DNA of 33,847 nucleotides, from positions 1 through 33,847 of the forward strand of contig NZ_BQXQ01000047.1 in the NCBI RefSeq assembly GCF_030159055.1. Direction: 5' to 3'. This DNA is from Acidovorax sp. SUPP3334. Lineage in GTDB: Bacteria > Pseudomonadota > Gammaproteobacteria > Burkholderiales > Burkholderiaceae_C. The notes under the pieces were generated by a model. That model ran no database searches. It was not told where the DNA came from and saw only the letters and a list, made by a program, of their open reading frames with translations. Made by a program: the position numbers and the translations under genes. This document shows, piece after piece, positions 16,092 through 33,696 of this stretch (within the stretch, counting starts at the first letter, position 1; the number at the start of each line of letters is the position of its first letter).

Positions 16092-16270
16092 TGCTTATTT
16101 GATTTGATTTTCGGTTAATATTGCCGTTGCATCGCCATCACATCGCTGAACGGCGATTGAGGCATCGATTTTCAATGTCAGGCACAGATCGATGGTGATC
16201 TGAGAACGACCACATCACTTGTATTTCTGTAAGGCTTTTGATGCATTTATCAGCAGGGAGGGAGAGATTT

Positions 16271-19200
16271 ATGAAAAGTTTTCTTGATATAAAAAATCAA
16301 CTGTCACCGGTCTTTTATCTCTGGGTCCGCCAGTTTAGGTTTTTCATGGGTCTCAGCGCGGTCAAGATGCTGATAATCACTGCGTCGGCGACGGTAAGTC
16401 TCTTTGCATCTACGCCTGCTGATGCAGCGATACAGGCGGAAATAACATTTTGCCGTACGGGCGATGTCGATGATCGGCTTTGCGGATCTCGTGAAACAAG
16501 AGTGGGTGCTTATAAGGCTTATATCGACAGACGCCCGGCGATGTGTGGTGATCGCATAAACACAAAAAATGTATGGATAGCCAGGGATGACGGCGCGCCT
16601 GTCGGTTATCTCGGAATAGGCTATTGGACATATTCGTGCTGGGGGAATGATGAGAAATACTATACTTCCTACGGCGGAGATTTTGGTTCATTCATCGAGA
16701 GTGGAATAACTTGCCCAGCCAACAGCACGGTGGTAGGCAGCGGTTGTGTCTGCAAATTCGGTTATCAAGAAGATCCCACCAGTACTTCATGTATTCCGGT
16801 GATTCCTATGGCACAAATGTGTGTGCCTGGCGTAGCTGGGGAGAGTGTTGGGTCGCCCATAGAGCCCGGCACTTCAGAGAAGGTTCGTTTTGAAACGGAC
16901 TGGGCCGGCTCTGGACCGAATGCATTGACCTTTCACAGATACTACCGTAGCACGCGCGGCGGAAGGCCGTCCGGAAGCTTCGATGGAGCTTGGGGTCATA
17001 ACCATGATGTCAAGCTCGAATATCTTCCCAAGTCGATTGATGGTGTATTAATCACATCGGGGGAAGGGCATGTACAAAGCTTTTCCAAGCCGAAGAACGC
17101 CGCATCTTGGAGCACCACCGGCAGCGGTACGTTAACCCAATCGCCCCAAGGTCTGTGGACATACCTGCGTGATGAAGACGGCGTCACGATGGTATTCAAC
17201 AGCACGGGCAAGTTGCAGTCCGCTACGGCCCGCAATGGATGGGTCACCTCTTATGTTTACGACCTGCAGGGTCGGCTGGCTACGGTTTCCAATAACTTTG
17301 GGCAATCGTTGGTTTTGGCGTATGGCAGCAACGGGTTATTGACGTCGGTTACTACGCCTGATCTACAAGTCATTCAATACACCTATGACGGCGGGGGGCG
17401 CCTCAGCACCGTTGCCTATCCCGATGGTAAGAATCGGACATTTCTCTACGAAGATGCGCGCTTCACCAAAGCGTTGACAGGTATCTTGGATGAATCGGGG
17501 GCGCGTTGGGGTACCTTCGCCTATGACAATGTGGGCCGTGCGGTTACGACGGAACTGGCCGGTGGAGCGAATCGCTACGAAGTGCAATATCCGCCGGTGC
17601 CCGAATACGGGTTTCAAGTCATCGATCCCCTTGGTACGGCTCGCGTTTTCAACTACAGCATCAACTTGGGCAAACTCGTTGTCAGTGGAGCCAGCTTGCC
17701 CGACGGCAGCGGTAAAGCAGACGCCGCCCAGCGGGTTCAAAACGCGCAGGGTTTGATCGACTCCGAGACTGATTTTCGAGGGGTAGTTAAAACGAAGCAG
17801 TGGGACTTCTCGCGCCAACTACCCATCAGCACCACAGAAGCCGCTGGCACGGCGCAGGCGCGCACGACCAGCACCGAGTGGCACCCCCAGTGGCGCCTGC
17901 CGGTCAAGGTGACGGAGGCGGGCCGCGAGACAAGCTACACGTACGACAGCCTGGGCAACGCCCTCACGCAGACGATCAAGGACACCAGCGTCACCCCGGC
18001 CGTCTCGCGGACCTGGACGTGGACGTATCACCCCACCGGCCTGGTCGCCAGCGAGACGGAGCCCAACGGTGCGGTGTCCAGCTTCACCTACGACAGCGCA
18101 GGCAACCTCACGCAGGCCACCAACGCGCTGGGCCAAAGCAGCCTGTACACCCACGACGCGGCCGGCCGGGTGCTCACCCACACCGCACCAACAGGTTTGG
18201 TCAGCACCTACCAATACGACTTGCGCGGTCGCCTGACGCGCGTGCAGCGCGGCGACGAAGCCACAGTGTTCACCTACCGGCCCACGGGCCAGGTCGTCAC
18301 CGCCAGCACACCGGCGGGCTACCAGATCACCTACACCTATGACGCGGCCCAGCGCCTGACCGGCTGGAGCGACAACCGGGGCGCGAGTGCCAGCTACACG
18401 CTGGACGGCATGGGTAACCGGATCAACGAAAGCATCACCGACGCCCAGGGCCAGGCCGCCTGGACGGTGGCGCGCACCATCAACAGCCTGAACCGGGTGG
18501 AGAGCGTCACCATCGGCTCGGCCGCCACGGGCACGCTCAGCACCACCGGATATGGCTACGACGCCAACGGCGACCTCATCCGCAGCACCGAGACCGTTGG
18601 GGGCGCCAGCCGCAGCACCACGCTCGGGCTGGATGCCCTGAGGCGCGTCAAAACCATCACCAACGCGCAGAACGCCAGCGCCGCACTGGTCTACAACGCG
18701 CAGGACGCCGTCACCCAGGCCACGGACTTCAAGAGCGTGGCCACCAGCTACGCGCGGGATGCGCTGGGCAATGCCAGGCAGGAAGCCAGCGCGGACAGCG
18801 GCACGCTCACCAGCAGCTACGACAGCCTGGGCCTGCCGCAAAGCATCACCGATGCACTGGGGAGTGCCAGCGCCATCACGCGGGACGCGCTGGGCCGGCC
18901 CACGCAGATCGTGAGCAGCCAGGGCGGGGTGAGCCGCACCACCGTGCTGCGCTACGACCTGCCCGGGGCGCAGTACAACGCCAGCGGCAGCGCGAGCGCC
19001 AGCGTGGGGTATCTGAGCGAGATCCAGGACGCGGGCGTCACCACGCGCTACCAGCGCGACGCGCAGGGGCGCATCACCGAGCGCACCCAGGTCTTGTCCA
19101 ATGGCACCAGCAGCACCGTGGGCTACCAGTACGTTCCTGCCGGGACGGGCAACGCAGGCGCGGGGCAGATCGCCCGCATCACCTACGCCAGCGGGCGCCA

Positions 19201-21010
19201 GCTGGTGCACCAGTACGACGCCACCGGCCAGCTCACCGGGCTGCAGTGGAACGGCCAGCCCCTGGTGAGCGGCATCACCTGGAGCCCGCTGGGCCAGGCC
19301 ACCGGCTGGCAATGGCCGGGCTTTGCGCAGACCCCCGGCAACCCCGCACCGCTGGCCGAGCAGCGCAGCTACACCAGCGCGGGCCAGCTGGCCGCCAGTG
19401 CCCTGCTGCAACTGACCTGGGACAGCGCCGGGCGCATCGCGCAGATCACCCAGCAGCACATGCTGCCCGCGGCAGGCAGCACCACGGTGGCGCAGCAGGT
19501 GCCGCTCACCAGCGCGTACAGCTACGACACGGTGGGCCGGCTCACCGCCAGCGCGCACAGCGCGCCAGGCACCCTCACGCTGCCCAGCGCAGCGGCATTG
19601 AGCGACACCATCGGAGCCAACGCCAGCGGCTACGCGTGGGATGCCAACGGCAACCGCAGCCAGAGCTACTACAGCAGCAGCACGGCGGGGGGCACCGCCA
19701 CGCTGCAGCGCGACTACCAGATCGCCAGCGACAGCAACCGCCTGGGCGGGTACACGCAGACCTTCACGCCAGCGGGTGGCAGCGCACAGACCAGCGCGGT
19801 GGCCTACAACCACGACGCCACGGGCTCGATCACGAGAAAGGGCGACAGCTACCTGCACTACGGCGTGGACGGGCGCATCGCCAAGGCCGGCCCCAGTGCC
19901 GACCCGGCCAACGCGCTGGCGGTGAGCTACACGTACAACGCCCTGGGCCAGCGGGTGTTCAAGAGCGATGCGAGGCTGTCCGGGTCGAACAACCCGGCCA
20001 TCACCCAGCAGACCGTGTATGCCGAAGACGGAATCGGCAGCACCGTGCTGGGCCAGTACGGCAGCAGACGGAGCAGCGACAGCGCGGCGCCGGCTGGGGA
20101 GATGGACAGCACGGAGGTCATCTACCTGCCCACGGCAGCAGGGCCGATGCCGATTGCGGCGCAGATCAACGGCAGGCTGTACGCCATCGATGCGGACCAC
20201 CTGAACACGCCGAGAAGGCTGACGAACACGCAGGGCCAGGTGGCGTGGCAGTGGCTGATCACGGGGTTCGGGGAGGCGAATCCGACGACCGGGGCGACCG
20301 GCTACACGCAGAGCGGGCAGGGGAGCGCAGCCTATGCGGAAGCCATCCGATTCGACCTGCGGTATCCGGGGCAGGTGTTCGATGAAGAGACAGGGTTGAA
20401 CTACAACCTGCACCGGTCTTATGACATGCCTTCAGGGCGGTACATCCAGAATGATCCCATCGGGCTCAATGGAGGATGGAATCGGTATGGGTATGTCGGT
20501 GGAAATCCGCTTAACTTTACTGATCCGACGGGCCTGCAAGCGATTCCTTTGCCGCCCCTGTTAATTCCTGGCGTGCCGAATCCATCAGTGGATGCGCAGC
20601 GCGACTTGGCAGACAGGCTGAGCCGGGCATTCAAAGACGATGACGAAACGACATATCAGACTTACACGCGATACAACCCACTGACTGGCGATTGCTATTC
20701 AGGCCGCACTTCAGGAATTGATACTCCAGAGCGCAACGTGCGAAATCGAGGTTATGGGCAATCCCTGCTCAATGCCGAAGGATTCTTGCCGCCCGTGTTG
20801 GATCGGTCGTCTACAAATTACGACGCTATCCGAGGGCGTGAGCAGCAACTCATCGATATCAATGGTGGAGCACAGAGTAGCGGCGGAGATTCGAGAAATA
20901 AGATTAATGGGATTAGCCCTTGGAACCCGCGTGGCCCACTTAGGTACATTCCTGCAGCTAATGCTGAGTTTGGGCGGCCGGTGGCTTCAGGTCATTGCAC
21001 TTGCCAGTAA
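16271..21010 (+). CDS. Full-length RHS-repeat polymorphic toxin with GIY-YIG-like C-terminal domain
   Basis: 1579 residues. The start at 16271 has GGAGAG 5 bases upstream. The N-terminus is Sec-like (MLIITASATVSLFASTPADA, cleavage near 52), then a Cys-rich EGF-like module (to about 185), a DUF6531-type segment beginning near 195 (SPIEPGTSEKVRFETDW), many YD repeats, and the RHS core end RFDLRYPGQVFDEETG...GRYIQNDPIGL...FTDPTGL. The toxin tip is residues 1423-1579: YQTYTRYNPLTGDCYSGRTSG, then R..GY and IRGREQQLID, which fits a GIY-YIG/URI nuclease pattern (Tyr, YxGRT, later Arg and Glu). The RHS shell presumably encloses the tip until delivery. No PAAR, VgrG or other T6SS gene is near. The only complete gene of the array. 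Confidence 0.9.
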   Translation: MKSFLDIKNQLSPVFYLWVRQFRFFMGLSAVKMLIITASATVSLFASTPADAAIQAEITFCRTGDVDDRLCGSRETRVGAYKAYIDRRPAMCGDRINTKNVWIARDDGAPVGYLGIGYWTYSCWGNDEKYYTSYGGDFGSFIESGITCPANSTVVGSGCVCKFGYQEDPTSTSCIPVIPMAQMCVPGVAGESVGSPIEPGTSEKVRFETDWAGSGPNALTFHRYYRSTRGGRPSGSFDGAWGHNHDVKLEYLPKSIDGVLITSGEGHVQSFSKPKNAASWSTTGSGTLTQSPQGLWTYLRDEDGVTMVFNSTGKLQSATARNGWVTSYVYDLQGRLATVSNNFGQSLVLAYGSNGLLTSVTTPDLQVIQYTYDGGGRLSTVAYPDGKNRTFLYEDARFTKALTGILDESGARWGTFAYDNVGRAVTTELAGGANRYEVQYPPVPEYGFQVIDPLGTARVFNYSINLGKLVVSGASLPDGSGKADAAQRVQNAQGLIDSETDFRGVVKTKQWDFSRQLPISTTEAAGTAQARTTSTEWHPQWRLPVKVTEAGRETSYTYDSLGNALTQTIKDTSVTPAVSRTWTWTYHPTGLVASETEPNGAVSSFTYDSAGNLTQATNALGQSSLYTHDAAGRVLTHTAPTGLVSTYQYDLRGRLTRVQRGDEATVFTYRPTGQVVTASTPAGYQITYTYDAAQRLTGWSDNRGASASYTLDGMGNRINESITDAQGQAAWTVARTINSLNRVESVTIGSAATGTLSTTGYGYDANGDLIRSTETVGGASRSTTLGLDALRRVKTITNAQNASAALVYNAQDAVTQATDFKSVATSYARDALGNARQEASADSGTLTSSYDSLGLPQSITDALGSASAITRDALGRPTQIVSSQGGVSRTTVLRYDLPGAQYNASGSASASVGYLSEIQDAGVTTRYQRDAQGRITERTQVLSNGTSSTVGYQYVPAGTGNAGAGQIARITYASGRQLVHQYDATGQLTGLQWNGQPLVSGITWSPLGQATGWQWPGFAQTPGNPAPLAEQRSYTSAGQLAASALLQLTWDSAGRIAQITQQHMLPAAGSTTVAQQVPLTSAYSYDTVGRLTASAHSAPGTLTLPSAAALSDTIGANASGYAWDANGNRSQSYYSSSTAGGTATLQRDYQIASDSNRLGGYTQTFTPAGGSAQTSAVAYNHDATGSITRKGDSYLHYGVDGRIAKAGPSADPANALAVSYTYNALGQRVFKSDARLSGSNNPAITQQTVYAEDGIGSTVLGQYGSRRSSDSAAPAGEMDSTEVIYLPTAAGPMPIAAQINGRLYAIDADHLNTPRRLTNTQGQVAWQWLITGFGEANPTTGATGYTQSGQGSAAYAEAIRFDLRYPGQVFDEETGLNYNLHRSYDMPSGRYIQNDPIGLNGGWNRYGYVGGNPLNFTDPTGLQAIPLPPLLIPGVPNPSVDAQRDLADRLSRAFKDDDETTYQTYTRYNPLTGDCYSGRTSGIDTPERNVRNRGYGQSLLNAEGFLPPVLDRSSTNYDAIRGREQQLIDINGGAQSSGGDSRNKINGISPWNPRGPLRYIPAANAEFGRPVASGHCTCQ
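19069..20390 (+). repeat. RHS core segment repeated in six downstream cassettes
   Basis: This GC-rich part of the core (from RITERTQVLSNG to QVFDEE) recurs almost unchanged, with different 5' ends, at about 21618-22945, 24221-25325, 26229-26750, 27629-28130, 29117-29450 (with an internal deletion) and 31535-32685. All copies are direct repeats. Identity drops sharply just after the conserved YPGQV[FW]DEE, where the tip-specific part begins. Confidence 0.9.
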
Positions 21011-24222: not shown

Positions 24223-25911
24223 AGCCCGCTGGGCCAGGCCACCGGCTGGCAATGGCCGGGCTTTGCGCAGACCCCCGGCAACCCCGCACCGCTGGCCGAG
24301 CAACGCAGCTACACCAGCGCGGGCCAACTGGCCGCCAGTGCCCTGCTGCAGCTCACCTGGGACAGCGCCGGGCGCATCGCGCAGATCACCCAGCAGCACA
24401 TGCTGCCTGCGGCAGGCAGCACCACGGTGGCGCAGCAGGTGGCGCTCACCAGCGCGTACAGCTACGACACGGTGGGCCGGCTCACCGCCAGCGCGCACAG
24501 CGCGCCAGGCACCCTCACGCTGCCCAGCGCAGCGGCATTGAGCGACACCATCGGTGCCAACGCCAGCGGCTACGCGTGGGATGCCAACGGCAACCGCAGC
24601 CAGAGCTACTACAGCAGCAGCACGGCAGGGGGCACCGCCACGCTGCAGCGCGACTACCAGATCGCCAGCGACAGCAACCGCCTGGGCGGGTACACGCAGA
24701 CCTTCACGCCAGCGGGTGGCAGCGCACAGACCAGCGCAGTTGCCTACAACCACGACGCCACGGGCTCGATCACGAGAAAGGGCGACAGCTACCTGCACTA
24801 CGGCGTGGACGGGCGCATCGCCAAGGCCGGCCCCAGCGCCGACCCGGCCAGCGCGCTGGCGGTGAGCTACACGTACAACGCCCTGGGCCAGCGGGTGTTC
24901 AAGAGCGATGCGAGGCTGTCCGGGGCGAACAACCCGGCCATCACGCAGCAGACCGTGTATGCGGAAGACGGAATCGGCAGCACCGTGCTGGGCCAGTACG
25001 GCAGCAGACGGAGCAGCGACAGCGCGGCACCGGCGGGCGAGATGGACAGCACCGAGGTCATCTACCTGCCCACGGCAGCAGGGCCGATGCCGATTGCCGC
25101 GCAGATCAACGGCAGGCTGTACGCCATCGATGCGGACCACCTGAACACGCCGAGAAGGCTGACGAACACGCAGGGCCAGGTGGCGTGGCAATGGCTGATC
25201 ACGGGGTTCGGAGAGGCGAATCCGACGACCGGGGCGGCCAATTACTCACAAAGCGGGCAGGGGAGCGCAGCCTATGCGGAAGCTATCCAATTCGATCTGC
25301 GGTATCCGGGGCAGGTGTTCGATGAAGAGACTCAGCTCAACTACAACCTGAATCGCTATTACGACCAGGCGTCGGGGCGGTACATCCAGGCCGATCCGAT
25401 TGGGTTGGATGGGGGATGGAATCCCTTTGGGTATGTTGCTGGAAACCCGATTTCTTTGATTGATCCGGATGGCTTGCAATTTCTAGACTTGACCACTCTT
25501 GCTGGAGCCAGACGAGAAACGACTTTGGACGATGCTGTAAGAGCCGGAGCTTGGACCCGGACGGTCACCATGCCTGCATCGGTAGTGGGATTTAGTCCTT
25601 CGGCAATAGGTCTGGCGGGGTCTGCTGCTGCGCCATTGTTTTGTTCAACTACAACTACGGTGACTTCATGGGCAGAGGCCGGCGTTGTGCCTGATCTGGC
25701 TGCGGGTAGATGGGTAATGCAGGGTGGTCCTAATACTTGGAATTACATTAGAACTGGTGTGTGGGGGCCTAGATTTACATTTGATAAAGGCCTTTCTTGG
25801 CCCGTTTATCCAATTTCGAACTCTGTAACTGGCACGGCTACAGTCAGTTGGCCTGTTGGTATTGCCAACTTTTGGCGAGGAATATTTGGTCAGAGGCAAA
25901 TAATTCCATGA
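24223..25911 (+). CDS. Orphan RHS-CT cassette 3, no usable start
   Basis: RHS-core identity begins at about 24221 (SPLGQATGWQW). The frame is open from a TGA at 24196-24198, and the first in-frame ATG is at 24400, deep within the core and without a ribosome site, so the cassette as it stands is probably not translated efficiently. The core runs to SLIDPDGL; the tip starts at 25477 (144 residues): QFLDLTTLAGA, then AGRWVMQGGPNTWNYIRTGVWGP and a Trp-rich end with FWRGIFGQ. I cannot name the toxin family. The stop overlaps the next gene as ATGA (25908-25911). The tip is AT-richer than the core. Confidence 0.75.
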   Translation, partial: SPLGQATGWQWPGFAQTPGNPAPLAEQRSYTSAGQLAASALLQLTWDSAGRIAQITQQHMLPAAGSTTVAQQVALTSAYSYDTVGRLTASAHSAPGTLTLPSAAALSDTIGANASGYAWDANGNRSQSYYSSSTAGGTATLQRDYQIASDSNRLGGYTQTFTPAGGSAQTSAVAYNHDATGSITRKGDSYLHYGVDGRIAKAGPSADPASALAVSYTYNALGQRVFKSDARLSGANNPAITQQTVYAEDGIGSTVLGQYGSRRSSDSAAPAGEMDSTEVIYLPTAAGPMPIAAQINGRLYAIDADHLNTPRRLTNTQGQVAWQWLITGFGEANPTTGAANYSQSGQGSAAYAEAIQFDLRYPGQVFDEETQLNYNLNRYYDQASGRYIQADPIGLDGGWNPFGYVAGNPISLIDPDGLQFLDLTTLAGARRETTLDDAVRAGAWTRTVTMPASVVGFSPSAIGLAGSAAAPLFCSTTTTVTSWAEAGVVPDLAAGRWVMQGGPNTWNYIRTGVWGPRFTFDKGLSWPVYPISNSVTGTATVSWPVGIANFWRGIFGQRQIIP

Positions 25912-26219
25912 ATATAGATAATTTTGAAGCTTTTCTACTCGTGGGATTTTTTTCAAAACTTCTTTGGAATATTATTTTTCCCTCAATGATGCAGTGGATG
26001 CATAAACTATGGGTTTTAGGGAGAATAAATGAAAAACCACGAGAATTTCAAATGTTTACAGGTTTGGAGGTTTTGTTTTTGTTAATTTTCTCGATGTGGG
26101 AAGGTTATGAGAAGGCTTCCCTACTCTATGGATTTATGGTTGTTGTTTTTGGTGGTTTGCTCGTTGGCCTATCTTATTTTTTGTGTGGCGCTATTACTAA
26201 ATTAATTAGAGGAAAGTAG
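25908..26219 (+). CDS. Immunity protein candidate 3, polytopic membrane protein
   Basis: 103 residues with about three hydrophobic segments (AFLLVGFFSKLLWNIIF, GLEVLFLLIFSMW, LYGFMVVVFGGLLVGLSYFL) and a basic cytoplasmic end. The ATGA overlap with the cassette 3 toxin marks it as its partner. A membrane immunity protein suggests that the tip acts at the inner membrane or periplasm. No family recognised. Strongly AT-rich. Confidence 0.75.
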   Translation: MNIDNFEAFLLVGFFSKLLWNIIFPSMMQWMHKLWVLGRINEKPREFQMFTGLEVLFLLIFSMWEGYEKASLLYGFMVVVFGGLLVGLSYFLCGAITKLIRGK

Positions 26220-26227
26220 CGAAATGC

Positions 26228-27343
26228 GTGAACGGCCGCATCGCCAAGGCCGGCCCCAGCGCCGACCTGGCCAACGCGCTGGCGGTGAGCTACACGTACA
26301 ACGCCCTGGGCCAGCGGGTGTTCAAGAGCGATGCGAGGCTGTCCGGGGCGAACAACCCGGCCGTTACGCAGCAGACGGTCTATGCGGAGGACGGCATCGG
26401 CAGCACCGTGCTGGGCCAGTACGGCAGCAGACGGAGCAGCGACAGCGCGGCGCCGGCCGGCGAGATGGACAGCACGGAGGTCATCTACCTGCCCACGGCC
26501 AGCGGGCCGATGCCGGTGGCGGCGCAGATCAACGGCAGGCTATACGCCATCGATGCGGACCACCTGAACACGCCCAGAAGGCTGACGAACACGCAGGGCC
26601 AGGTGGCGTGGCAGTGGCTGATCACGGGGTTCGGGGAGGCGAATCCGACGACCGGGGCGACCGGCTACTCACAAAGCGGGCAGGGGAGCGCCAACTATGC
26701 CGAACCCATCCGATTCGATCTGCGGTATCCGGGGCAGGTGTGGGATGAGGAAACCCAACTGGCGTACAACCTGAACCGGTACTACGACCAGGCGTCGGGG
26801 CGGTACATCCAGGCGGACCCGATTGGGCTGGATGGGGGATGGAATCGCTACCTCTACGTAGATGGATCGCCGACGAACCTAATTGACCCTTCTGGATTGG
26901 CGAGTTTCATGCCGGGTGCAGGGTTTGGAGATTCTCCATTGGTGGACAACGGGTCAAGTTGCTCGCCGATGTTTCAGCAGCCCCGTGTGGATGATGGGGG
27001 ATGTATTTCCACTGGTGGTGGCCCCAACATCTGCATTGGCCCTGGAAGTATTAGGGGAGTATTGCCTAGATCAGCTGCAAAGATTGATCCAGCCGTAATT
27101 CGAGAAATCGAACAAATTGTGAGATCAGGAGGCTCTGCGTTTCCGCTCGAAGCTGGCGCTCAACTTCGAGCGGTCGCAGAATCTTTTGCCGGGAAAATAC
27201 GTAATGCTGGTACTGCTGCGCAGGCAGCTCATATTAGAGATGTGGGTCTCGGCGCTATTGATAGATTGGATAGATTTGATGCGCTCACACCGGCGGCTAG
27301 GCAGCAACTTCGAGAAATCATCAATGGAGCATTTAGGCCATGA
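26228..27343 (+). CDS. Orphan RHS-CT cassette 4
   Basis: 371 codons from a GTG at 26228 that has no clear ribosome site. Core identity begins abruptly with NGRIAKAGPSADL, 9 bases after the previous immunity gene, and runs to RYPGQVWDEETQLAYN and LIDPSGL. The tip starts at 26900 (147 residues): a Gly/Ser/Cys-containing linker (DNGSSCSPMF, GGCISTGGGPNICIGPG), then a charged helical domain (IDPAVIREIEQIVRSGG, QLREIINGAF). The toxin family is not recognised. ATGA overlap with the next gene. Confidence 0.75.
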   Translation: MNGRIAKAGPSADLANALAVSYTYNALGQRVFKSDARLSGANNPAVTQQTVYAEDGIGSTVLGQYGSRRSSDSAAPAGEMDSTEVIYLPTASGPMPVAAQINGRLYAIDADHLNTPRRLTNTQGQVAWQWLITGFGEANPTTGATGYSQSGQGSANYAEPIRFDLRYPGQVWDEETQLAYNLNRYYDQASGRYIQADPIGLDGGWNRYLYVDGSPTNLIDPSGLASFMPGAGFGDSPLVDNGSSCSPMFQQPRVDDGGCISTGGGPNICIGPGSIRGVLPRSAAKIDPAVIREIEQIVRSGGSAFPLEAGAQLRAVAESFAGKIRNAGTAAQAAHIRDVGLGAIDRLDRFDALTPAARQQLREIINGAFRP

Positions 27344-27588
27344 ATGAATTAAACGATCCAATTGAAAGTTTGGCATTTGCCGAATTAATAATATCTTGTC
27401 AAGTGGATGGCTGTCTGAATATATTCCAGAAAAGCTTGGATGAGCCAGCAACCGACCCTGTGGAAAAGTGGTCTGTCAAGATGTCCGGCTTGGCTCGCGC
27501 TGCCGGGTGGGCCTCTGATCCTACGGGAAAAGTTTTATGCCCAATTCATGCTAATGCAGAAATGGGTGGCAATAAATTGATATCTTAA
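27340..27588 (+). CDS. Immunity protein candidate 4, small Cys-rich
   Basis: 82 residues, overlapping the cassette 4 stop by ATGA. It has C-x(4)-C (SCQVDGC) near residue 20 and CPIH near the C-terminus, separated by a GLARAAGWASDPTGKVL stretch. This four-ligand pattern could hold a zinc ion, as in treble-clef or knuckle folds. No family named. It is short, but the overlap and paired layout make it credible. Confidence 0.7.
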   Translation: MNELNDPIESLAFAELIISCQVDGCLNIFQKSLDEPATDPVEKWSVKMSGLARAAGWASDPTGKVLCPIHANAEMGGNKLIS

Positions 27589-27628
27589 AATTGATTAGCT
27601 GCATTACGCCAGTGATATTTGAATCGCT

Positions 27629-27666
27629 GAAGCAGGCCTGACCGCCGACCCGGCCAATCCCTTGGC
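27629..27666 (+). pseudogene. Decayed, frameshifted 5' end of cassette 5 core
   Basis: The sequence resembles the core region for KAGPSADPANALAVSY but with substitutions and one base missing (GGCGTGAGC instead of GGCGGTGAGC at about 27664-27669). The decayed part is therefore out of frame with the intact part that follows. Confidence 0.6.
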
Positions 27667-28743
27667 GTGAGCTACACGTACAACGCCCTGGGCCAGCGGG
27701 TGTTCAAGAGCGATGCGAGGCTGTCCGGGTCGAACAACCCGGCCATCACGCAGCAGACCGTGTATGCGGAGGACGGCATCGGCAGCACCGTGCTGGGCCA
27801 GTACGGCAGCAGACGGAGCAGCGACAGCGCGGCACCGGCGGGCGAGATGGACAGCACCGAGGTCATCTACCTGCCCACGGCAACCGGGCCGATGCCCATC
27901 GCCGCGCAGATCAATGGCAGGCTGTACGCCATCGATGCGGACCACCTGAACACGCCCCGGCGCCTGACGAACACGCAGGGCCAGGTGGCGTGGCAGTGGC
28001 TGATCACGGGGTTCGGGGAGGCGAATCCGACGACCGGGGCGACCGGCTACACGCAAAGCGGGCAGGGGAGCGCAGCCTATGCGGAACCCATCCGATTCGA
28101 CCTGCGGTATCCCGGGCAGGTCTGGGATGAGGAAACCCAACTGGCGTACAACCTGAATCGGTACTACGACCAAGTGTCGGGGAGGTACATCCAGGCCGAT
28201 CCGATTGGGCTGGATGGGGGATGGAATCGCTTTGCCTATGTGGGGGGGAATCCTCTGAATAGCACCGATCCTCTCGGCCTGATGACTTGGGAAAGCTGGT
28301 GGGATGCCTCGGTCGCAGGCTTCCAATCTGAGACACCTTGGAGTGCGGCAATGCGCGTTCTTGAAGGATGGCCTGTCGGTGCTTCAATGGTTGGGGGAGC
28401 AGGCCGATATTTAGCTGCTTGGTCAAAAGCTCCCGCCATTGTTGAACAAGGAGCAATGTGTGTCCCTGCCTCTAGAGAAGCGTTGAAAGCGGATATGTTT
28501 GCAATGAGAGCAGCTCCCGAATTAAAGGCAATCTTAAATTGGGGGAGGGACATTCCTGGCATTCAGGCGGCGAGATCTAGTCTTGATGCAATGAAAATGC
28601 AAGGTATTCAATCCAGTATGACTAGAGCCGAAATAGAAACTATTCGAGATTTTTATAGAGCTGCAGCAGCGAACGGAAGAGGTGGCGCTGTAGCGCCTGA
28701 GCGTGCCGCTTATATGGAACAAATTCTTCAGTTATGGAAATAA
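27667..28743 (+). CDS. Orphan RHS-CT cassette 5
   Basis: 358 codons from a GTG at 27667 that is simply the core Val codon of VSYTYNALGQ; there is no ribosome site. The core ends YPGQVWDEETQLAYN ... NSTDPLGL. The tip starts at 28282 (153 residues): MTWESWWDASVAGF, AMRVLEGWPVGASMVGG, then a helical C-terminal domain with RAEIETIRDFYRAAAANGRGG and ERAAYMEQILQLW. I recall similar C-terminal ends in other RHS proteins but cannot name the toxin family. It is followed after 3 bases by its immunity gene. Confidence 0.75.
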   Translation: MSYTYNALGQRVFKSDARLSGSNNPAITQQTVYAEDGIGSTVLGQYGSRRSSDSAAPAGEMDSTEVIYLPTATGPMPIAAQINGRLYAIDADHLNTPRRLTNTQGQVAWQWLITGFGEANPTTGATGYTQSGQGSAAYAEPIRFDLRYPGQVWDEETQLAYNLNRYYDQVSGRYIQADPIGLDGGWNRFAYVGGNPLNSTDPLGLMTWESWWDASVAGFQSETPWSAAMRVLEGWPVGASMVGGAGRYLAAWSKAPAIVEQGAMCVPASREALKADMFAMRAAPELKAILNWGRDIPGIQAARSSLDAMKMQGIQSSMTRAEIETIRDFYRAAAANGRGGAVAPERAAYMEQILQLWK

Positions 28744-28746
28744 ATC

Positions 28747-29010
28747 ATGGCGAATATTACTACTAGCATTTTGCTTCAAAATGAAAGCGATAGCCCTATG
28801 GTAATTTTTTTAGAGCCCATTGCGGAGATGTATTCGATAATTCCAAATCAAAAAATACAAATCCATGCAATTTTTGAAGAAAATACGAATAACTTGAATT
28901 TTACTATTGCTCCAAATAATGACGGAATAACTATTTATGTTCCTGGTGAGATAGTTGGGTATGTGGATAGCTATGTAACTATTGATGGCGTCAGAATTAA
29001 GCCTGATTAA
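28747..29010 (+). CDS. Immunity protein candidate 5, beta-rich
   Basis: 87 residues, cytosolic, predicted all-beta: ITTSILLQNESDSPMVIFLEP, IQIHAIFEEN, NFTIAPNNDGITIYVPGEIVG. Proteins of this look (NESD...FLEP...IHAI) recur next to RHS toxins in other proteobacteria as far as I recall. It begins 3 bases after the cassette 5 stop and is very AT-rich. It probably binds the cassette 5 tip. Confidence 0.75.
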   Translation: MANITTSILLQNESDSPMVIFLEPIAEMYSIIPNQKIQIHAIFEENTNNLNFTIAPNNDGITIYVPGEIVGYVDSYVTIDGVRIKPD

Positions 29011-29025
29011 TACTCCCCCAGCCCT

Positions 29026-29116
29026 CATCGGTTTGCCTATGTGGGCGGTGATCCGCTTTCGTTCGTGGACCCAGAGGGCCTGCAGTGTCTTGACCTGACG
29101 ACGCTTGCGGGAGCAA
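29026..29116 (+). pseudogene. Fossil of an RHS core end with start of a type-3 tip
   Basis: In the frame starting at 29029 the DNA encodes RFAYVGGDPLSFVDPEGL followed by QCLDLTTLAGA, almost the same as the start of the cassette 3 tip (QFLDLTTLAGA). It then breaks into the core of cassette 6 (GCCTACAACCAC) one base out of frame. This is the remnant of a former module whose tip was removed by recombination. Confidence 0.7.
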
Positions 29117-30091
29117 GCCTACAACCACGACGCCACGGGCTCGATCACGAGAAAGGGCGACAGCTACCTGCACTACGGCGTGGACGGGCGCATCGCCAAG
29201 GCCGGCCCCAGCGCCGACCCGGCCAACGCGCTGGCGGTGAGCTACACGTACAACGCCCTGGGCCAGCGGGTGTTCAAGAGCGATGCGAGGCTGTCCGGGT
29301 CGAACAACCCGGCCATCACGCAGCAGACCGTGTATGCGGAAGACGGCATCGGCAGCACCGTGCTGGGCCAGTACGGCAATCGCAGGAGCAGCAATTACAG
29401 CGAGCCCATCCGATTCGATCTGCGGTATCCCGGGCAGGTCTGGGATGAGGAAACCCAACTGGCGTACAACCTGAATCGGTACTACGACCAGGCGTCGGGG
29501 CGGTACATCCAGGCCGACCCGATTGGGCTGGATGGGGGATGGAATCGCTTTGGGTATGTGGCCGGGGACCCGCTTAATGCGATAGACCCGCAAGGATTGA
29601 ATGCGGTCCTGATTGCCAATAGAGCAGCGGCTTGGGTACAAGGTGCCTATTACCGGTATGGCCCAGCCATTACAGAATTCATTGCTGGGGCTTCGGGTGT
29701 CAATGGCGCGGTGGTGTCCCCGATGAGTCCATTGGTGGCGCAGATTCCGACTTCTGTCTCTCGGATGACTCCGGTAGCCAGAGCGGTAATTGAAGGAGTG
29801 GAGTCAGGAGGGCTGTGTTCTGCTCAGACAGCAAGTCGCGCAATTACTTTGACAAATGGTTTTTATCAAGCGGAAGGGTCAGCCTTTAAATTTTCTGATT
29901 ATTACTACAACAAACTTTGGTCTACTGGTCGTGGGGCGCCATTTTTACAGGCTGAAGAAATATTTCTCACATCAAAGACGGTCACGCCCGATCGTATGGC
30001 GGGTTTTAATCGTTATGTAAACGAGGCCTTTGAAATGATTTATAACCCGTCAACTAAAGAAGTTTGGCATCTTCAGCCTAATAGGAAGTAA
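29105..30091 (+). CDS. Orphan RHS-CT cassette 6, core with internal deletion
   Basis: 328 codons from a TTG with no ribosome site; core identity begins at AYNHDATGSITRKG. An in-frame deletion removes about 85 core residues between GQYGNRRSS and EPIRFDLRYPGQ, including the conserved YAIDADHLNTPRRLT block, so this core could not form a normal RHS end by itself. The tip starts at 29600 (163 residues). Its first 65 residues (NAVLIANRAAAWVQGAYY ... SRMTPVARAV) match those of cassette 7, then it switches to FKFSDYYYNKLWSTGRGAPF and EMIYNPSTKEVWHLQP, a tip I have seen in other polymorphic toxins but cannot name. Confidence 0.75.
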   Translation: MREQAYNHDATGSITRKGDSYLHYGVDGRIAKAGPSADPANALAVSYTYNALGQRVFKSDARLSGSNNPAITQQTVYAEDGIGSTVLGQYGNRRSSNYSEPIRFDLRYPGQVWDEETQLAYNLNRYYDQASGRYIQADPIGLDGGWNRFGYVAGDPLNAIDPQGLNAVLIANRAAAWVQGAYYRYGPAITEFIAGASGVNGAVVSPMSPLVAQIPTSVSRMTPVARAVIEGVESGGLCSAQTASRAITLTNGFYQAEGSAFKFSDYYYNKLWSTGRGAPFLQAEEIFLTSKTVTPDRMAGFNRYVNEAFEMIYNPSTKEVWHLQPNRK

Positions 30092-30096
30092 CACCC

Positions 30097-30507
30097 ATGT
30101 TTAACGAATTGTTTCGATCAATTTATCTATCTCATATTTCAAAAGGAGGTTTGATAGTTGATTGGGTGGAGGATGAATTTAGGTTTAGCGCAGCTCGCGA
30201 GAAATCTATTAATTTTGATCAAAGTGAGCAGGAAATTTATAAATCATTTTTCTCGAGTGAAAATCAGAGCAAATTTTATCTTCTATACTGCAGGATTAGA
30301 GGCGAAATGGTGGGTGTTCCCTACTCTCGATGTGAAAAGCTGATTGGCATGTTGGCTTTTATGCAGGAAATTTTGGCCACTGCACTTTGGAAGCATAACC
30401 AGAGAGTTGAGGTGGATATGGAAAATTTTGCTAGAGAATTTGATCGTCTTGATATTGAAGATGAGCGTTTTCGATTGTATGAAAGTGTGCAAAAAAGAGG
30501 CGAGTAA
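30097..30507 (+). CDS. Immunity protein candidate 6
   Basis: 136 residues, cytosolic, acidic, mixed alpha/beta. The ATG lies 5 bases after the cassette 6 stop with AGGAAG upstream inside the toxin gene end. Features: GGLIVDWVEDEFRFS, YLLYCRIRGEMVGVPYSRCEKL and an acidic helical C-terminus (EFDRLDIEDERFRLYESV). No family recognised. Very AT-rich compared with the RHS core. Confidence 0.75.
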   Translation: MFNELFRSIYLSHISKGGLIVDWVEDEFRFSAAREKSINFDQSEQEIYKSFFSSENQSKFYLLYCRIRGEMVGVPYSRCEKLIGMLAFMQEILATALWKHNQRVEVDMENFAREFDRLDIEDERFRLYESVQKRGE

Positions 30508-30561
30508 CTGGATTTTTTATTGGCTGAGGTTTTCCATTGACTTTTGTGATTGATTTTGTCA

Positions 30562-30900
30562 ATGAATGATTCGGTAAAAATTCAAGATAGCTTGGCTTCG
30601 ATTTTTGAGCAAGAAGGAACTTCTCTTGGGAGCGAAGGGGTTGATGAAGTGGCACTACCCCTCCACGCTGCAATGCACGCTATTACGATCTTGCGCACAT
30701 ATCGCACAGCGGCTAAAGTTGGCGAGGTTTGGGAGAAAATCGGCGATAGATTCAAGCCTACTTACGATGGATGGAATTTTGAAAGAAAGGCTTACTCAAG
30801 CGAGAGTGAATATGTTGAGGCAACCTTGGATGCCGCCGAAAAATTAGTAATATTTTACTTTTCTCGCGGAGGAGAATTTTATATTGTATTTGGAGTTTGA
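30562..30900 (+). CDS. Hypothetical protein, possible second or orphan immunity protein
   Basis: 112 residues from the ATG at 30562; a TTG 12 bases earlier is possible. Cytosolic, acidic, with a helical middle (HAAMHAITILRTYRTAAKVGEVW) and a beta-hairpin end (EKLVIFYFSRGGEFYIVFGV). It follows immunity candidate 6 by 54 bases and ends just before the fossil toxin tail. It may serve cassette 6 or be left from a lost module. Family not recognised. Confidence 0.6.
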   Translation: MNDSVKIQDSLASIFEQEGTSLGSEGVDEVALPLHAAMHAITILRTYRTAAKVGEVWEKIGDRFKPTYDGWNFERKAYSSESEYVEATLDAAEKLVIFYFSRGGEFYIVFGV

Positions 30901-30907
30901 TTGCGCG

Positions 30908-30964
30908 GACGCTACTAGTGAATTCGGTACACCAATACCTACGGGCAGATGTACTTGCCAATAA
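30908..30964 (+). pseudogene. Fossil C-terminal tail of a lost RHS toxin tip
   Basis: The frame ending at TAA 30962-30964 encodes EFGTPIPTGRCTCQ, which aligns with the last residues of the full-length RHS protein (EFGRPVASGHCTCQ). Nothing else of that toxin remains upstream. The next gene, one base later, is a homologue of its immunity protein, so the tail marks the site of a former GIY-YIG-type module. Confidence 0.75.
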
Positions 30965-30965
30965 T

Positions 30966-31424
30966 ATGAGTACCGAAAAAATTTCTGATGAGGACTACCA
31001 AAAACTCAAGGCATTTTTGGGTAATTTTTTCGACTGGTATAACGCACGTCCTAATATGCCAGCTGAGATTCATCCACTGTATATGGCTGAAATAATAGAG
31101 CGTCGATCAATGAAAGATGCCCAGCGCGGTTTGCAGATGGCAATCAACGATACGGTTGAAGACACATCAAACTGGACACCTGATGCGATTGCTGCTGCCG
31201 ATGCAAGATTCGCAGCCGCTGGCACCTTTACCTTGAGTGAGGTCAGGCGCCGCTATTCAAAGAAGTATCTTCAGATTCTCAAGCGCGGCCTGATTCGTTC
31301 GGAGACCGAGTACTACTTGCTCAAGGGCGTCGCGGATGGCGGCGGCATTGAGCCAAGTGCTACGGAAGGCCAGCAGATCGAAGCCATGCTCGCGGCATTT
31401 GAAGCCAAAATCATGAAAAACTGA
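30966..31424 (+). CDS. Imm1-type immunity protein, orphan paralogue
   Basis: 152 residues, the same length as Imm1 (21027-21485). The last 100 residues are almost identical (ADARFAAAGTFTLSEVRRR, YYLLKGVADGGGIEP), while the first 50 differ (SDEDYQKLKAFLGNFFDWYN). The ATG follows the stop of the fossil toxin tail by one base. It is an immunity gene retained after loss of its toxin, or one that protects against related tips in neighbours. A longer ORF start at 30897 is not supported. Confidence 0.8.
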   Translation: MSTEKISDEDYQKLKAFLGNFFDWYNARPNMPAEIHPLYMAEIIERRSMKDAQRGLQMAINDTVEDTSNWTPDAIAAADARFAAAGTFTLSEVRRRYSKKYLQILKRGLIRSETEYYLLKGVADGGGIEPSATEGQQIEAMLAAFEAKIMKN

Positions 31425-31535
31425 ATTGCTATTAATTTTGTAGCTATATGCCGGCGATTTTATTGTTGTACGGTAGGTTTGGACGTAGAAAACGCGGCCA
31501 GCGCCTGACGGGCTGGAGCGACAACCGGGGAGCGC
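31126..31535 (+). repeat. Duplicated block, copy 2
   Basis: Matches 21187-21595 at a constant offset of about 9.94 kb through the immunity 3' half, the palindrome and the RHS scar QRLTGWSDNRGA. After the scar the two copies enter the RHS core at different points, so their later histories differ. Confidence 0.75.
31428..31444. repeat. Palindrome GCTAT-N7-GTAGC after the Imm1 paralogue
   Basis: A decayed copy of the palindrome at 21488-21506, with one G-T wobble in a 5-base stem. It lies at the same place relative to the immunity stop codon. Confidence 0.45.
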
Positions 31536-33388
31536 GAACCATCAACGGCCAGCCCCTGGTGAGCGGCATCACCTGGAGCCCGCTGGGCCAGGCCAGCGGC
31601 TGGCAATGGCCGGGCTTTGCGCAAACCCCCGGCAACCCCGCACCGCTGGCCGAGCAGCGCAGCTACACCAGCGCGGGCCAGCTGGCCGCCAGTGCCCTGC
31701 TGCAACTGACCTGGGACAGCGCCGGGCGCATCGCGCAGATCACCCAGCAGCACATGCTGCCCGCGGCAGGCAGCACCACGGTGGCGCAGCAAGTGCCGCT
31801 CACCAGCGCGTACAGCTACGACACGGTGGGCCGGCTCACCGCCAGCGCGCACAGCGCGCCAGGCACCCTCACGCTGCCCAGCGCAGCGGCATTGAGCGAC
31901 ACCATCGGTGCCAACGCCAGCGGCTACGCGTGGGATGCCAACGGCAACCGCAGCCAGAGCTACTACAGCAGCAGCACGGCAGGGGGCACAGCCACGCTGC
32001 AGCGCGACTACCAGATCGCCAGCGACAGCAACCGCCTGGGCGGGTACACGCAGACCTTCACGCCAGCGGGCGCAAGTGCACAGACGACCAGCATCACCTA
32101 CCACCACGACGCCACGGGCTCGATCACGAGAAAGGGCGACAGCTACCTGCACTACGGCGTGGACGGGCGCATCGCCAAGGCCGGCCCCAGCGCCGACCCG
32201 GCCAGCGCGCTGGCGGTGAGCTACACGTACAACGCCCTGGGCCAGCGGGTGTTCAAGAGCGATGCGAGGCTGTCCGGGTCGAACAACCCGGCCGTCACCC
32301 AGCAGACCGTGTATGCCGAAGACGGCATCGGCAGCACCGTGCTGGGCCAGTACGGCAGCCGCAGGAGCGGCAACAGCGCCGCAGCAACCGGCGAGATGGA
32401 CAGCACCGAGGTCATCTACCTGCCCACGGCAGCAGGGCCGATGCCGGTGGCCGCGCAGATCAACGGCAGGCTGTACGCCATCGATGCGGACCATCTGAAC
32501 ACGCCCCGGCGCCTCACCAACACGCAGGGCCAGGTGGCGTGGCAATGGCTGATCACGGGGTTCGGGGAGGCCAATCCAACGACCGGGGCGACCAATTACT
32601 CACAAAGCGGGCAGGGGAGCGCCAACTATGCCGAACCCATCCGATTCGATCTGCGGTATCCGGGGCAGGTGTTCGATGAAGAGACCCAGCTCAACTACAA
32701 CCTGAATCGGTACTACGACCAGACGTCGGGGAGGTACATCCAGGCCGACCCGATTGGGTTGGATGGGGGATGGAATCGCTTTGGGTATGTGGCCGGGAAC
32801 CCGCTTAATGCGATAGACCCGCAAGGATTGAATGCGGTCCTGATTGCCAATAGAGCAGCGGCTTGGGTACAAGGTGCCTACTACCGATACGGCCCAGCTA
32901 TTACTGAATTCATTGCTGGGGCATCGGGTGTCAATGGTGCGGTGGTATCTCCAATGAGCCCATTGGTGGCGCAGATTCCGACTTCTATCTCACGGATGAC
33001 TCCTGTGGCAAGGGCTGTCTCAGAAAGCCTTGAATCGGCTGGAGTTTGCGCTGCAAATAATTCAAAAAAGTTAATAGATGTATTTAGAGCGGTTGTACCT
33101 GCCGAACTAAACAGCATTCAGAAGAATGGCATTTTCACGAATTTATCTGGCTTCGAGGGTAAATACTTTACAACCAGTGCGCAAGCTGCTTCAAGCTATG
33201 CGCGACAAGCAGTTAGGGGTTTTGGAGATCCTGCTTATACTATTGTCCAAAGTAAGGTGCCGCAAAGCGTTCTTAATCAGCCCGGAATATCTGCTACCGT
33301 TGATCGCGGAATTCCAGCTTTCGTAATTCCAAATGGAAATTTGCCCGGCCTAATCCCGAATATTCTTAGCTACTCTCCATTGCCATGA
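31448..33388 (+). CDS. Orphan RHS-CT cassette 7 with ADP-ribosyltransferase-like tip
   Basis: 646 codons. It opens with the scar QRLTGWSDNRGA and jumps to NGQPLVSGITWSPLGQ, then an uninterrupted core to YPGQVFDEETQLNYN and NAIDPQGL. The tip starts at 32831 (185 residues): a 65-residue pre-toxin region shared with cassette 6, then VFRAVVPAELNSIQKNG, GFEGKYFTTSAQAASSYARQ, YTIVQSKVP and a GIPAFVIPNGNLPG loop. The Arg in a first strand, then YFTTS, resembles the R-S-[QE] order of ADP-ribosyltransferase toxins and recalls the TreTu type that modifies EF-Tu (memory, not searched). No signal peptide and no good ribosome site. ATGA overlap with its immunity gene. Confidence 0.75.
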   Translation: MPAILLLYGRFGRRKRGQRLTGWSDNRGARTINGQPLVSGITWSPLGQASGWQWPGFAQTPGNPAPLAEQRSYTSAGQLAASALLQLTWDSAGRIAQITQQHMLPAAGSTTVAQQVPLTSAYSYDTVGRLTASAHSAPGTLTLPSAAALSDTIGANASGYAWDANGNRSQSYYSSSTAGGTATLQRDYQIASDSNRLGGYTQTFTPAGASAQTTSITYHHDATGSITRKGDSYLHYGVDGRIAKAGPSADPASALAVSYTYNALGQRVFKSDARLSGSNNPAVTQQTVYAEDGIGSTVLGQYGSRRSGNSAAATGEMDSTEVIYLPTAAGPMPVAAQINGRLYAIDADHLNTPRRLTNTQGQVAWQWLITGFGEANPTTGATNYSQSGQGSANYAEPIRFDLRYPGQVFDEETQLNYNLNRYYDQTSGRYIQADPIGLDGGWNRFGYVAGNPLNAIDPQGLNAVLIANRAAAWVQGAYYRYGPAITEFIAGASGVNGAVVSPMSPLVAQIPTSISRMTPVARAVSESLESAGVCAANNSKKLIDVFRAVVPAELNSIQKNGIFTNLSGFEGKYFTTSAQAASSYARQAVRGFGDPAYTIVQSKVPQSVLNQPGISATVDRGIPAFVIPNGNLPGLIPNILSYSPLP

Positions 33389-33696
33389 AGCGTATTTTTG
33401 CAAAAATAAACCTTTTTAGTAATTTTGACGGAGGACGTTCTCAGGCAATACCGGCCATGAATTTTGGATGCCCGGTCTTTTTTGAGAATATTCCAGCCCT
33501 TTCTAAGCATGGCTACGACTGTCGTTTACTAATGTCTGAGTATGGTCAATCCATCTCTCCGGGAGAAATTGCAGAACCTGTTCCCATAATTTTCCTTTCT
33601 CAGGATGAGGTGCTTTTACATGTAAAAGTAGGGGCGCAATTTAGCTTGTGGGAAGGTAAGAAAATTGGGGTTGGTGAAATTTTGAAAATTGAATAA
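33385..33696 (+). CDS. Immunity protein candidate 7, EF-Tu domain III-like
   Basis: 103 residues, overlapping the cassette 7 stop by ATGA. The sequence resembles elongation factor Tu domain III from end to end. IFAKINLFSNFDGGR corresponds to the first strand and the GGR turn (FESEVYILSKDEGGR in E. coli). ISPGEIAEP corresponds to the MPGDNI region. The end VGAQFSLWEGKKIGVGEILKI matches the LRFAIREGGRTVGAGVV pattern. Many positions differ and there is no GTPase domain. A partner for a toxin suspected of targeting EF-Tu might work as a decoy or active-site plug. The resemblance is read by eye. Confidence 0.75.
   Translation: MKRIFAKINLFSNFDGGRSQAIPAMNFGCPVFFENIPALSKHGYDCRLLMSEYGQSISPGEIAEPVPIIFLSQDEVLLHVKVGAQFSLWEGKKIGVGEILKIE

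What the first reader, a model, noticed from the sequence alone, without database searches (positions are those of the whole stretch)
33385..33696. Immunity protein that looks like EF-Tu domain III
The 103-residue partner of the last toxin carries the GGR turn, a PG-E segment and the final F-x-[LI]-x-EG...[IV]G-x-G-[EV][IV] strand pattern of EF-Tu domain III. If the toxin targets EF-Tu, the immunity protein may mimic the target. That would be a molecular decoy rather than an ordinary inhibitor.
Basis: partly seen in the sequence, partly recalled or inferred. Interest (0 to 1): 0.8.

Follow-up and report, generated by a model that had tools for sequence, protein, structure and literature searches.

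The report
Toxin antidote resembling EF-Tu domain III
A small protein encoded directly behind a bacterial weapon toxin has the shape and distant sequence of one domain of EF-Tu, a core protein-synthesis factor, which suggests that the antidote may work by imitating something the toxin grabs in its victim.

Summary
ORF 33385-33696 overlaps the stop of an Rhs-tip toxin gene (ATGA). Alone it matches no Pfam or NCBIfam model. A profile of it and three relatives finds only EF-Tu among PDB sequences (4 of 4 matches at E<=10, best 0.011); an eight-row profile gives 59 of 59, best 1.3e-9, over domain III. An AlphaFold2 model (pLDDT 83; two of five models good) has EF-Tu chains as all 50 listed PDB matches, TM 0.64-0.73.

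The pairing recurs: a Vibrio relative has a toxin remnant directly upstream; a toxin relative in another family has an ORF behind it that is only weakly D3-like. Relatives without the toxin occur on plasmids and beside integron integrases.

Not shown: that the toxin acts on EF-Tu, or that the immunity protein is a decoy. The toxin model failed (pLDDT 40), and Pfam TreTu_C (EF-Tu-modifying toxins) does not match. Most likely: a cognate immunity protein derived from EF-Tu domain III that blocks the toxin's EF-Tu docking surface (0.45); main rival: the fold reused as an ordinary plug (0.3).

The parts
31448..33388 (+). Truncated Rhs unit (646 aa): part of an Rhs core ending in the DPxGL motif, a pre-toxin linker and a C-terminal toxin tip; no Rhs N-terminal part of its own
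   Evidence: ORF; Rhs_assc_core E 7.2e-21; a neighbouring unit shares its linker
33041..33385 (+). Toxin tip (115 aa; its start is set by me from where the shared linker ends), activity unknown
   Evidence: 31-34% identical to the tip of L016; its C-terminal half 44% identical over the aligned part to a remnant in L002; 43.5% GC against 67.0% in the core
33385..33388 (+). ATGA overlap of toxin stop and immunity start
   Evidence: Sequence
33385..33696 (+). Predicted immunity protein, 103 aa, EF-Tu domain III fold and family
33430..33438 (+). GGR turn (residues 16-18), aligned to G319-G320-R321 of the genome's own EF-Tu
33640..33690 (+). FSLWEGKKIGVGEILKI strands (residues 86-102), aligned to the C-terminal strands of EF-Tu; in the ten sequences compared (window included) the E of EG is kept in 10 and the G in 9

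Best explanation
The ORF encodes the cognate immunity protein of the Rhs tip just upstream. It descends from, or shares a close ancestor with, domain III of bacterial EF-Tu and keeps its fold. Shown here: gene overlap, homology to EF-Tu domain III, predicted fold, recurrence of the toxin/D3 pairing in a distant bacterium. Inferred: the toxin recognises EF-Tu through domain III or the surface beside it, as a substrate or as a required host partner, and the immunity protein occupies that same docking surface. It would then be a target-derived decoy that binds the toxin and does not take part in translation.
For: Immunity role: ATGA overlap. A toxin profile made without Vibrio data finds, as its only match at E<=1 in that 4.8 Mb genome, a remnant whose stop overlaps the start of the Vibrio D3-like gene; that gene had been found by immunity sequence alone. 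Conversely L016 was found by toxin sequence alone, and the ORF behind its toxin ranks 51st of 1890 segments for a profile built without it, just below the family members, the EF-Tus and the D3-like L014, though only at E 0.18 (next 5.2 bits against its 8.9). EF-Tu descent; fold. Reason to think of mimicry: two non-glycine residues constant in 28 of 28 EF-Tu sequences are largely kept in the ten D3-like sequences compared (window included), E381 in 10 and R321 in 8, K in a ninth. Recalled, not tested: these lie at the tRNA T-stem contact and at the domain I/III contact, and eEF1A lacks them. Several interbacterial toxins are known to engage EF-Tu: PDB titles 5i4q and 7vmc (CdiA/CdiI/EF-Tu) and 4zv4 (Tse6/EF-Tu); TreTu, which ADP-ribosylates it (passages).
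Against: Identity to the genome's own EF-Tu is only 18% over 91 positions, and of the nine EF-Tu positions kept in at least 8 of the ten sequences six are glycines, which fold upkeep alone would explain. No evidence that the toxin touches EF-Tu. Eight of the eleven short D3-like genes examined have no such toxin next to them or in the genome or plasmid record searched. L016's partner is a weak match: the number of its 2000 shuffles that score as well is 0, 6, 6, 33, 100 and 679 against six different profiles, and hhalign gives it 0.4 to 4.6% probability.
Confidence: 0.45

Rival explanations
1. Domain III fold reused as an ordinary inhibitor: the immunity protein plugs the toxin's active site, and its EF-Tu origin says nothing about the toxin's target.
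For: Low identity to EF-Tu and retention mainly of glycines; in two Rhs ART pairs on record the immunity protein covers the catalytic cleft, one by crystal structure, one by model (passages of PMC13324451 and PMC13285283).
Against: Needs coincidence that a translation-factor domain was chosen; the kept R and E are constant in EF-Tu (28 of 28).
Confidence: 0.3
2. Shielding rather than decoy: the D3-like protein binds a normal partner of EF-Tu domain III (EF-Tu domains I/II, EF-Ts or the T-stem of aminoacyl-tRNA) and covers the site that the toxin attacks, so it protects against several toxins of that kind.
For: Eight of eleven examined D3-like genes have no such toxin nearby, two of them lying in integron settings; the E-G pair is kept.
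Against: A protein that sits on EF-Tu partners would be expected to cost growth (inference); the tight gene overlap points to a toxin-specific partner.
Confidence: 0.15
3. Not the immunity gene: an independent mobile gene that happens to lie behind the tip.
For: Eight of eleven examined short D3-like loci are without this toxin.
Against: ATGA overlap; same order again in Vibrio with the toxin remnant overlapping the gene start.
Confidence: 0.06
4. Chance likeness of a small beta protein, no kinship to EF-Tu.
For: The single sequence finds nothing in the libraries searched and scores 0.3 bits against an EF-Tu-only profile.
Against: Family profiles find EF-Tu and nothing else at E<=10 in 177635 PDB sequences; 0 of 2000 shuffles against relatives plus EF-Tu; fold search.
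Confidence: 0.03

Closest known systems
Bacterial EF-Tu domain III (Pfam PF03143 GTP_EFTU_D3)
   Same: Predicted fold over the whole chain; GGR, PG, EG and G-x-G positions; profile matches
   Different: Stands alone, 103 aa, 18% identical to own EF-Tu, below Pfam detection, next to a toxin, no GTPase domain or domain II
Stand-alone EF-Tu-D3-like proteins (for example L058, Spartinivicinus plasmid pA, annotated as elongation factor Tu; L052 passes the Pfam cut-off)
   Same: Same length class and motifs; share a family profile
   Different: The five of this second group are 14-24% identical to the window protein, and none has the toxin next to it
TreTu/TriTu, Salmonella Rhs toxin that ADP-ribosylates EF-Tu, and its immunity protein (Jurenas 2022; paper not held, seen only through passages of PMC10469887 and PMC12487901)
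   Same: Rhs tip with immunity gene behind it; possible link to EF-Tu
   Different: Pfam TreTu_C matches nothing in the three genomes that hold this toxin or its relatives at E<=10. Recalled: TriTu closes the catalytic site as a lid, with no EF-Tu likeness reported
CdiA-CT/CdiI of E. coli NC101, with EF-Tu as partner (PDB 5i4q; passage of PMC9086364)
   Same: Toxin and immunity protein both engage EF-Tu, the immunity protein touching domains II and III
   Different: There the immunity protein binds EF-Tu; here it is itself a domain III relative
Colicin D immunity protein, a tRNA mimic (title seen in the reference list)
   Same: Idea of an immunity protein that imitates the target
   Different: Imitates a tRNA; here the immunity protein is kin to a protein domain of the presumed target

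Membership tests
EF-Tu domain III family | Pfam gathering score for PF03143 | tested here: not met
   No match for the window protein; relatives L013 15.1 bits, L059 17.2, L058 25.8, L052 28.5 against a cut-off of 27; L060 no match
EF-Tu domain III family | Sequence homology by family profile | tested here: met
   EF-Tu only, aligned to domain III; shuffles. EF-Tu-only profile does not detect the window protein
EF-Tu domain III family | Domain III beta-barrel fold | tested here: met
   Predicted model with six strands and Foldseek, 50 of 50 listed matches EF-Tu chains; prediction only, GGR loop of low confidence, aligned part of EF-Tu not printed
Polymorphic-toxin immunity protein | Small gene directly after the toxin tip | tested here: met
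   ATGA overlap; again in L002, tentatively in L016
Polymorphic-toxin immunity protein | Neutralises its toxin | not testable with these tools
   Needs co-expression
TreTu toxin | Match to Pfam TreTu_C (PF24691) | tested here: not met
   0 of 3 genomes at E<=10 (no genome of the 14 controls passed the cut-off, so no strong positive control); no TreTu_C in Pfam scans. Remote kinship is not excluded
ADP-ribosyltransferase toxin | ART fold | tested here: inconclusive
   ART-PolyVal at E 0.14, 13.4 bits against a cut-off of 31.2; model unusable, pLDDT 40
Target-mimicking decoy immunity | Immunity protein and target bind the same toxin surface | not testable with these tools
   No co-folding on hand
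EF-Tu-dependent CDI toxin (NC101 type) | Toxin needs EF-Tu | not testable with these tools
   Needs biochemistry

The most novel reading that the evidence does not exclude
Bacteria keep a mobile family of single-domain proteins derived from EF-Tu domain III, carried in Rhs arrays, integron cassettes and plasmids, that serve as decoys against toxins which dock on EF-Tu: an immunity family born from the toxin's own target.
Probability: 0.33. Interest if true: 0.85.

Novelty: new variant of a known kind. Interest (0 to 1): 0.62.

Why it matters
Rhs tips and their immunity genes are common, but an immunity protein that is kin to a domain of an essential translation factor points straight at a candidate target for an otherwise unreadable toxin. 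If the decoy reading is right, the family gives a simple rule (find the stand-alone copy of a host domain beside a toxin and read off the target), and the cassette-borne copies would be portable protection against EF-Tu-directed weapons.

Tried and rejected
Single-sequence searches of the window protein in Pfam, NCBIfam, PDB sequences, PADLOC and PHROGs gave nothing. Viral contigs gave no relatives in 4 scans, three with immunity queries and one with the toxin tip. Phage records matched L052 in 16 records; of the 15 rows listed 8 are annotated as elongation factor Tu and 7 carry no annotation; none was opened. The Vibrio relative matched no phage record. Against plasmids: toxin tip, its L016 relative and L016's downstream ORF gave none; L013 gave 6 records, 5 annotated as elongation factor Tu and 1 unannotated; L003 gave one Variovorax record. 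The weak single-sequence hits L004-L007 match neither family profile at E<=1 and were dropped; for L004 only the strand opposite to the match was printed. L017 (E 0.007) and L050 (E 0.0068) were not followed up as toxin relatives. PDB matches of the longer toxin piece to a spike-protein construct (E 7.6e-4, two weak stretches) fall mostly in the linker and were judged noise. Structure of the toxin: failed. TreTu membership: not met. TriTu's own fold could not be compared: the paper is not held, and TriTu is not among the 50 fold matches listed.

Full report
What is there. The last 2.4 kb of the window is a truncated Rhs unit (ORF 31448-33388, 646 aa) whose tip differs from that of the unit at 29105-30091 although the two share their pre-toxin linker (72 of 104 aligned residues identical, nearly all in the first 60 or so). 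The core is 67.0% GC, the toxin tip 43.5% and the small ORF behind it 39.7%, as one expects of exchanged tip cassettes. The small ORF begins inside the toxin's stop codon (ATGA) and codes for 103 aa.

Is it EF-Tu domain III? Alone it matches nothing. Relatives: Vibrio sonorensis L002, Variovorax plasmid L008, L003 from the same order, L012 and L013 from the same phylum, L052 from the class, plasmid copies L058-L060. L013 matches the EF-Tu models of NCBIfam at E 7.7e-6, positions 305-392 of 394, and L052 passes Pfam's cut-off for GTP_EFTU_D3 (28.5 against 27). The six-row profile A2, run over 340 genomes of the class, matched in 5 at E<=0.001: own, L052's, and three whose matched frames are 397-407 aa long. 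Two of those three read as EF-Tu (L053/L056; L055/L057); the third, L054, was not read. Against 177635 PDB sequences at E<=10, A4 (8 rows) matched 59, A2 (6 rows) 47 and A1 (4 rows) 4, all named elongation factor Tu, or ancestral, consensus or fusion forms of it, over domain III; best E 1.3e-9, 4.4e-5 and 0.011. A4 is the strongest partly because it holds L052, which is close to EF-Tu. hhalign of A2 with own EF-Tu domain III: probability 93%, E 3.6e-7; of A1: 54%, 1.3e-4.

Controls and results against. 0 of 2000 shuffles of the window protein reach its 14.0 bits against five relatives plus EF-Tu; EF-Tu domain II gives no match (probability 0.2-0.8%). But EF-Tu domain III alone, without the relatives, does not detect the window protein (0.3 bits, 121 of 2000 shuffles as good; hhalign probability 0.3%). 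The kinship is carried by intermediates, and independently by the fold.

Fold. AlphaFold2 on window plus Vibrio sequence: pLDDT 83, pTM 0.75; only two of five models are good, and residues 15-19, the GGR loop, are below 50. Foldseek against the PDB found 62 matches at E<=0.001; the 50 listed are EF-Tu chains, E 8.4e-5 to 8.0e-4, TM-score 0.64-0.73 by query length. The listing does not print the aligned part of EF-Tu. In the viral library the best row is an uncharacterised 91-aa phage protein (TM 0.61), then GTP-binding and translation factors of giant viruses.

Is it the toxin's partner? The toxin tip searched in 399 genomes of the order matched in 3: own, L016 in another family (E 4.9e-6) and L017 (E 0.007, not pursued); L016 is 31% identical over 109 aa. 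A profile of window and L016 tips, searched in 11 genomes and plasmid records that hold D3-like genes, matched in 2: L016's own and the Vibrio genome. The Vibrio match is a remnant whose stop overlaps the start of the D3-like gene. In L016 the frame behind the toxin is open from ATG 1776, inside the toxin gene; I took the ATG at 1824, 14 bases after the toxin stop. A profile built without it ranks it 51st of 1890 segments, below the members, the EF-Tus and L014 (8.9 bits, E 0.18; next 5.2). Of its 2000 shuffles 0 score as well against the ten-member family profile, 6 against that plus EF-Tu, 100 against the five closer members, 679 against EF-Tu alone, 6 and 33 against two more; hhalign probabilities are 0.4-4.6%, and default HMMER does not list it. 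So: pairing certain in the window, well supported in Vibrio, tentative in L016. In a tree of 18 rows the window and Vibrio proteins group together with modest support (84/78), L016's on a very long branch nearby. The immunity gene is an accessory: none of the 16 other genomes of the genus among 50 relatives has a match at E<=0.01.

Family at large. Of eleven short D3-like genes examined (window, L002, L003, L008, L012, L013, L016, L052, L058, L059, L060) eight have no such toxin. L003 lies beside an integron integrase (TIGR02249, E 4.1e-138), behind a GTTAGGC core site (7 such sites in L003 against 4.3 expected, reached by 29 of 200 shuffles, so the count itself is not above chance) and before an attC-like element that folds better than all 200 shuffles (z -4.28). 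L059 lies in a class 1 integron of plasmid pKPC-1ac6, after an aminoglycoside-acetyltransferase and a lysE-family gene, not annotated there; the cassette ends were read by eye. A same-family genome, G350, holds a longer frame whose end is D3-like, preceded by a hydrophobic stretch (L014). Streptomyces and Kitasatospora plasmids hold longer frames with a D3-like end (L061-L063).

How it may work. In the numbering of this genome's EF-Tu, the ten sequences compared (window included) keep G319 (9), G320 (10), R321 (8, K in a ninth), G356 (10), P368 (8), G374 (8), E381 (10), G382 (9) and G387 (9). From recall: the GGR loop faces domain I near the kirromycin site, and E378 of E. coli, which I take to be E381 here, contacts the tRNA T-stem; neither was tested. 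Toxins that meet EF-Tu are known (PDB titles; passages). A toxin that docks on domain III would be blocked by a free domain III that has lost the rest of EF-Tu, which is why I put target mimicry first, at 0.45. The main rival is a fold reused without mimicry (0.3). The toxin's activity is unknown: its likeness to ADP-ribosyltransferases is a motif impression with one sub-threshold Pfam row (E 0.14), the TreTu_C model does not match and the model failed.

Literature seen. Eight searches: TreTu with TriTu (2 papers); ADP-ribosylation, EF-Tu, Rhs and immunity protein (13); EF-Tu, immunity protein and mimic (33, 30 listed); EF-Tu domain, immunity protein, decoy (212 with two of three terms, 12 listed); EF-Tu C-terminal domain, standalone, toxin (3145 with two of three, 10 listed); domain III of EF-Tu, toxin, immunity (2); TreTu with ADP-ribosyl terms (6); integron cassette with elongation factor Tu (15, 6 listed). 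None of the listed titles or starts of abstracts describes an EF-Tu-derived immunity protein. Passages read: PMC10469887, PMC12487901, PMC13324451, PMC13285283, PMC9086364, PMC10901736. The polymorphic-toxin survey PMC3482391 has no occurrence of EF-Tu, elongation factor, translation factor or mimic in the part held. The library lacks most subscription papers, and most hits of the wide searches were not listed, so absence from print is not established.

Noticed in passing
L003:1321-1629 and L059:4893-5321: Stand-alone EF-Tu-domain-III genes sit in integron settings, one first beside an integron integrase, one unannotated in a class 1 integron of a KPC plasmid.
   Followed up: partly
L058:4917-5309: A 130-aa stand-alone domain III protein on a Spartinivicinus plasmid is annotated as elongation factor Tu (WP_222937783.1), likely a misnomer.
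   Followed up: partly
L002:2398-5626: Vibrio sonorensis locus with what look like several toxin/immunity fragments and a REP-associated tyrosine transposase (below its cut-off); the toxin upstream of the D3-like gene is only a remnant.
   Followed up: partly
window 24400-33388: Array of at least five partial Rhs units (24400, 26228, 27667, 29105, 31448), each a repeated core piece with its own tip and small ORFs behind it; scanned units match only RHS families of Pfam at E<=0.01.
   Followed up: partly
window 16238-21010: Long Rhs ORF (1590 aa) with RHS repeats and DUF6531, perhaps the full-length member with which the orphan tips are exchanged.
   Followed up: no
L014:1-1731: In a genome of the same family a frame ends in a D3-like domain preceded by a hydrophobic stretch, perhaps a membrane-anchored version.
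   Followed up: no
BFVD A0A6J5RG77: Best viral fold match is an uncharacterised 91-aa phage protein (TM 0.61), so phages may carry stand-alone domain III too.
   Followed up: no
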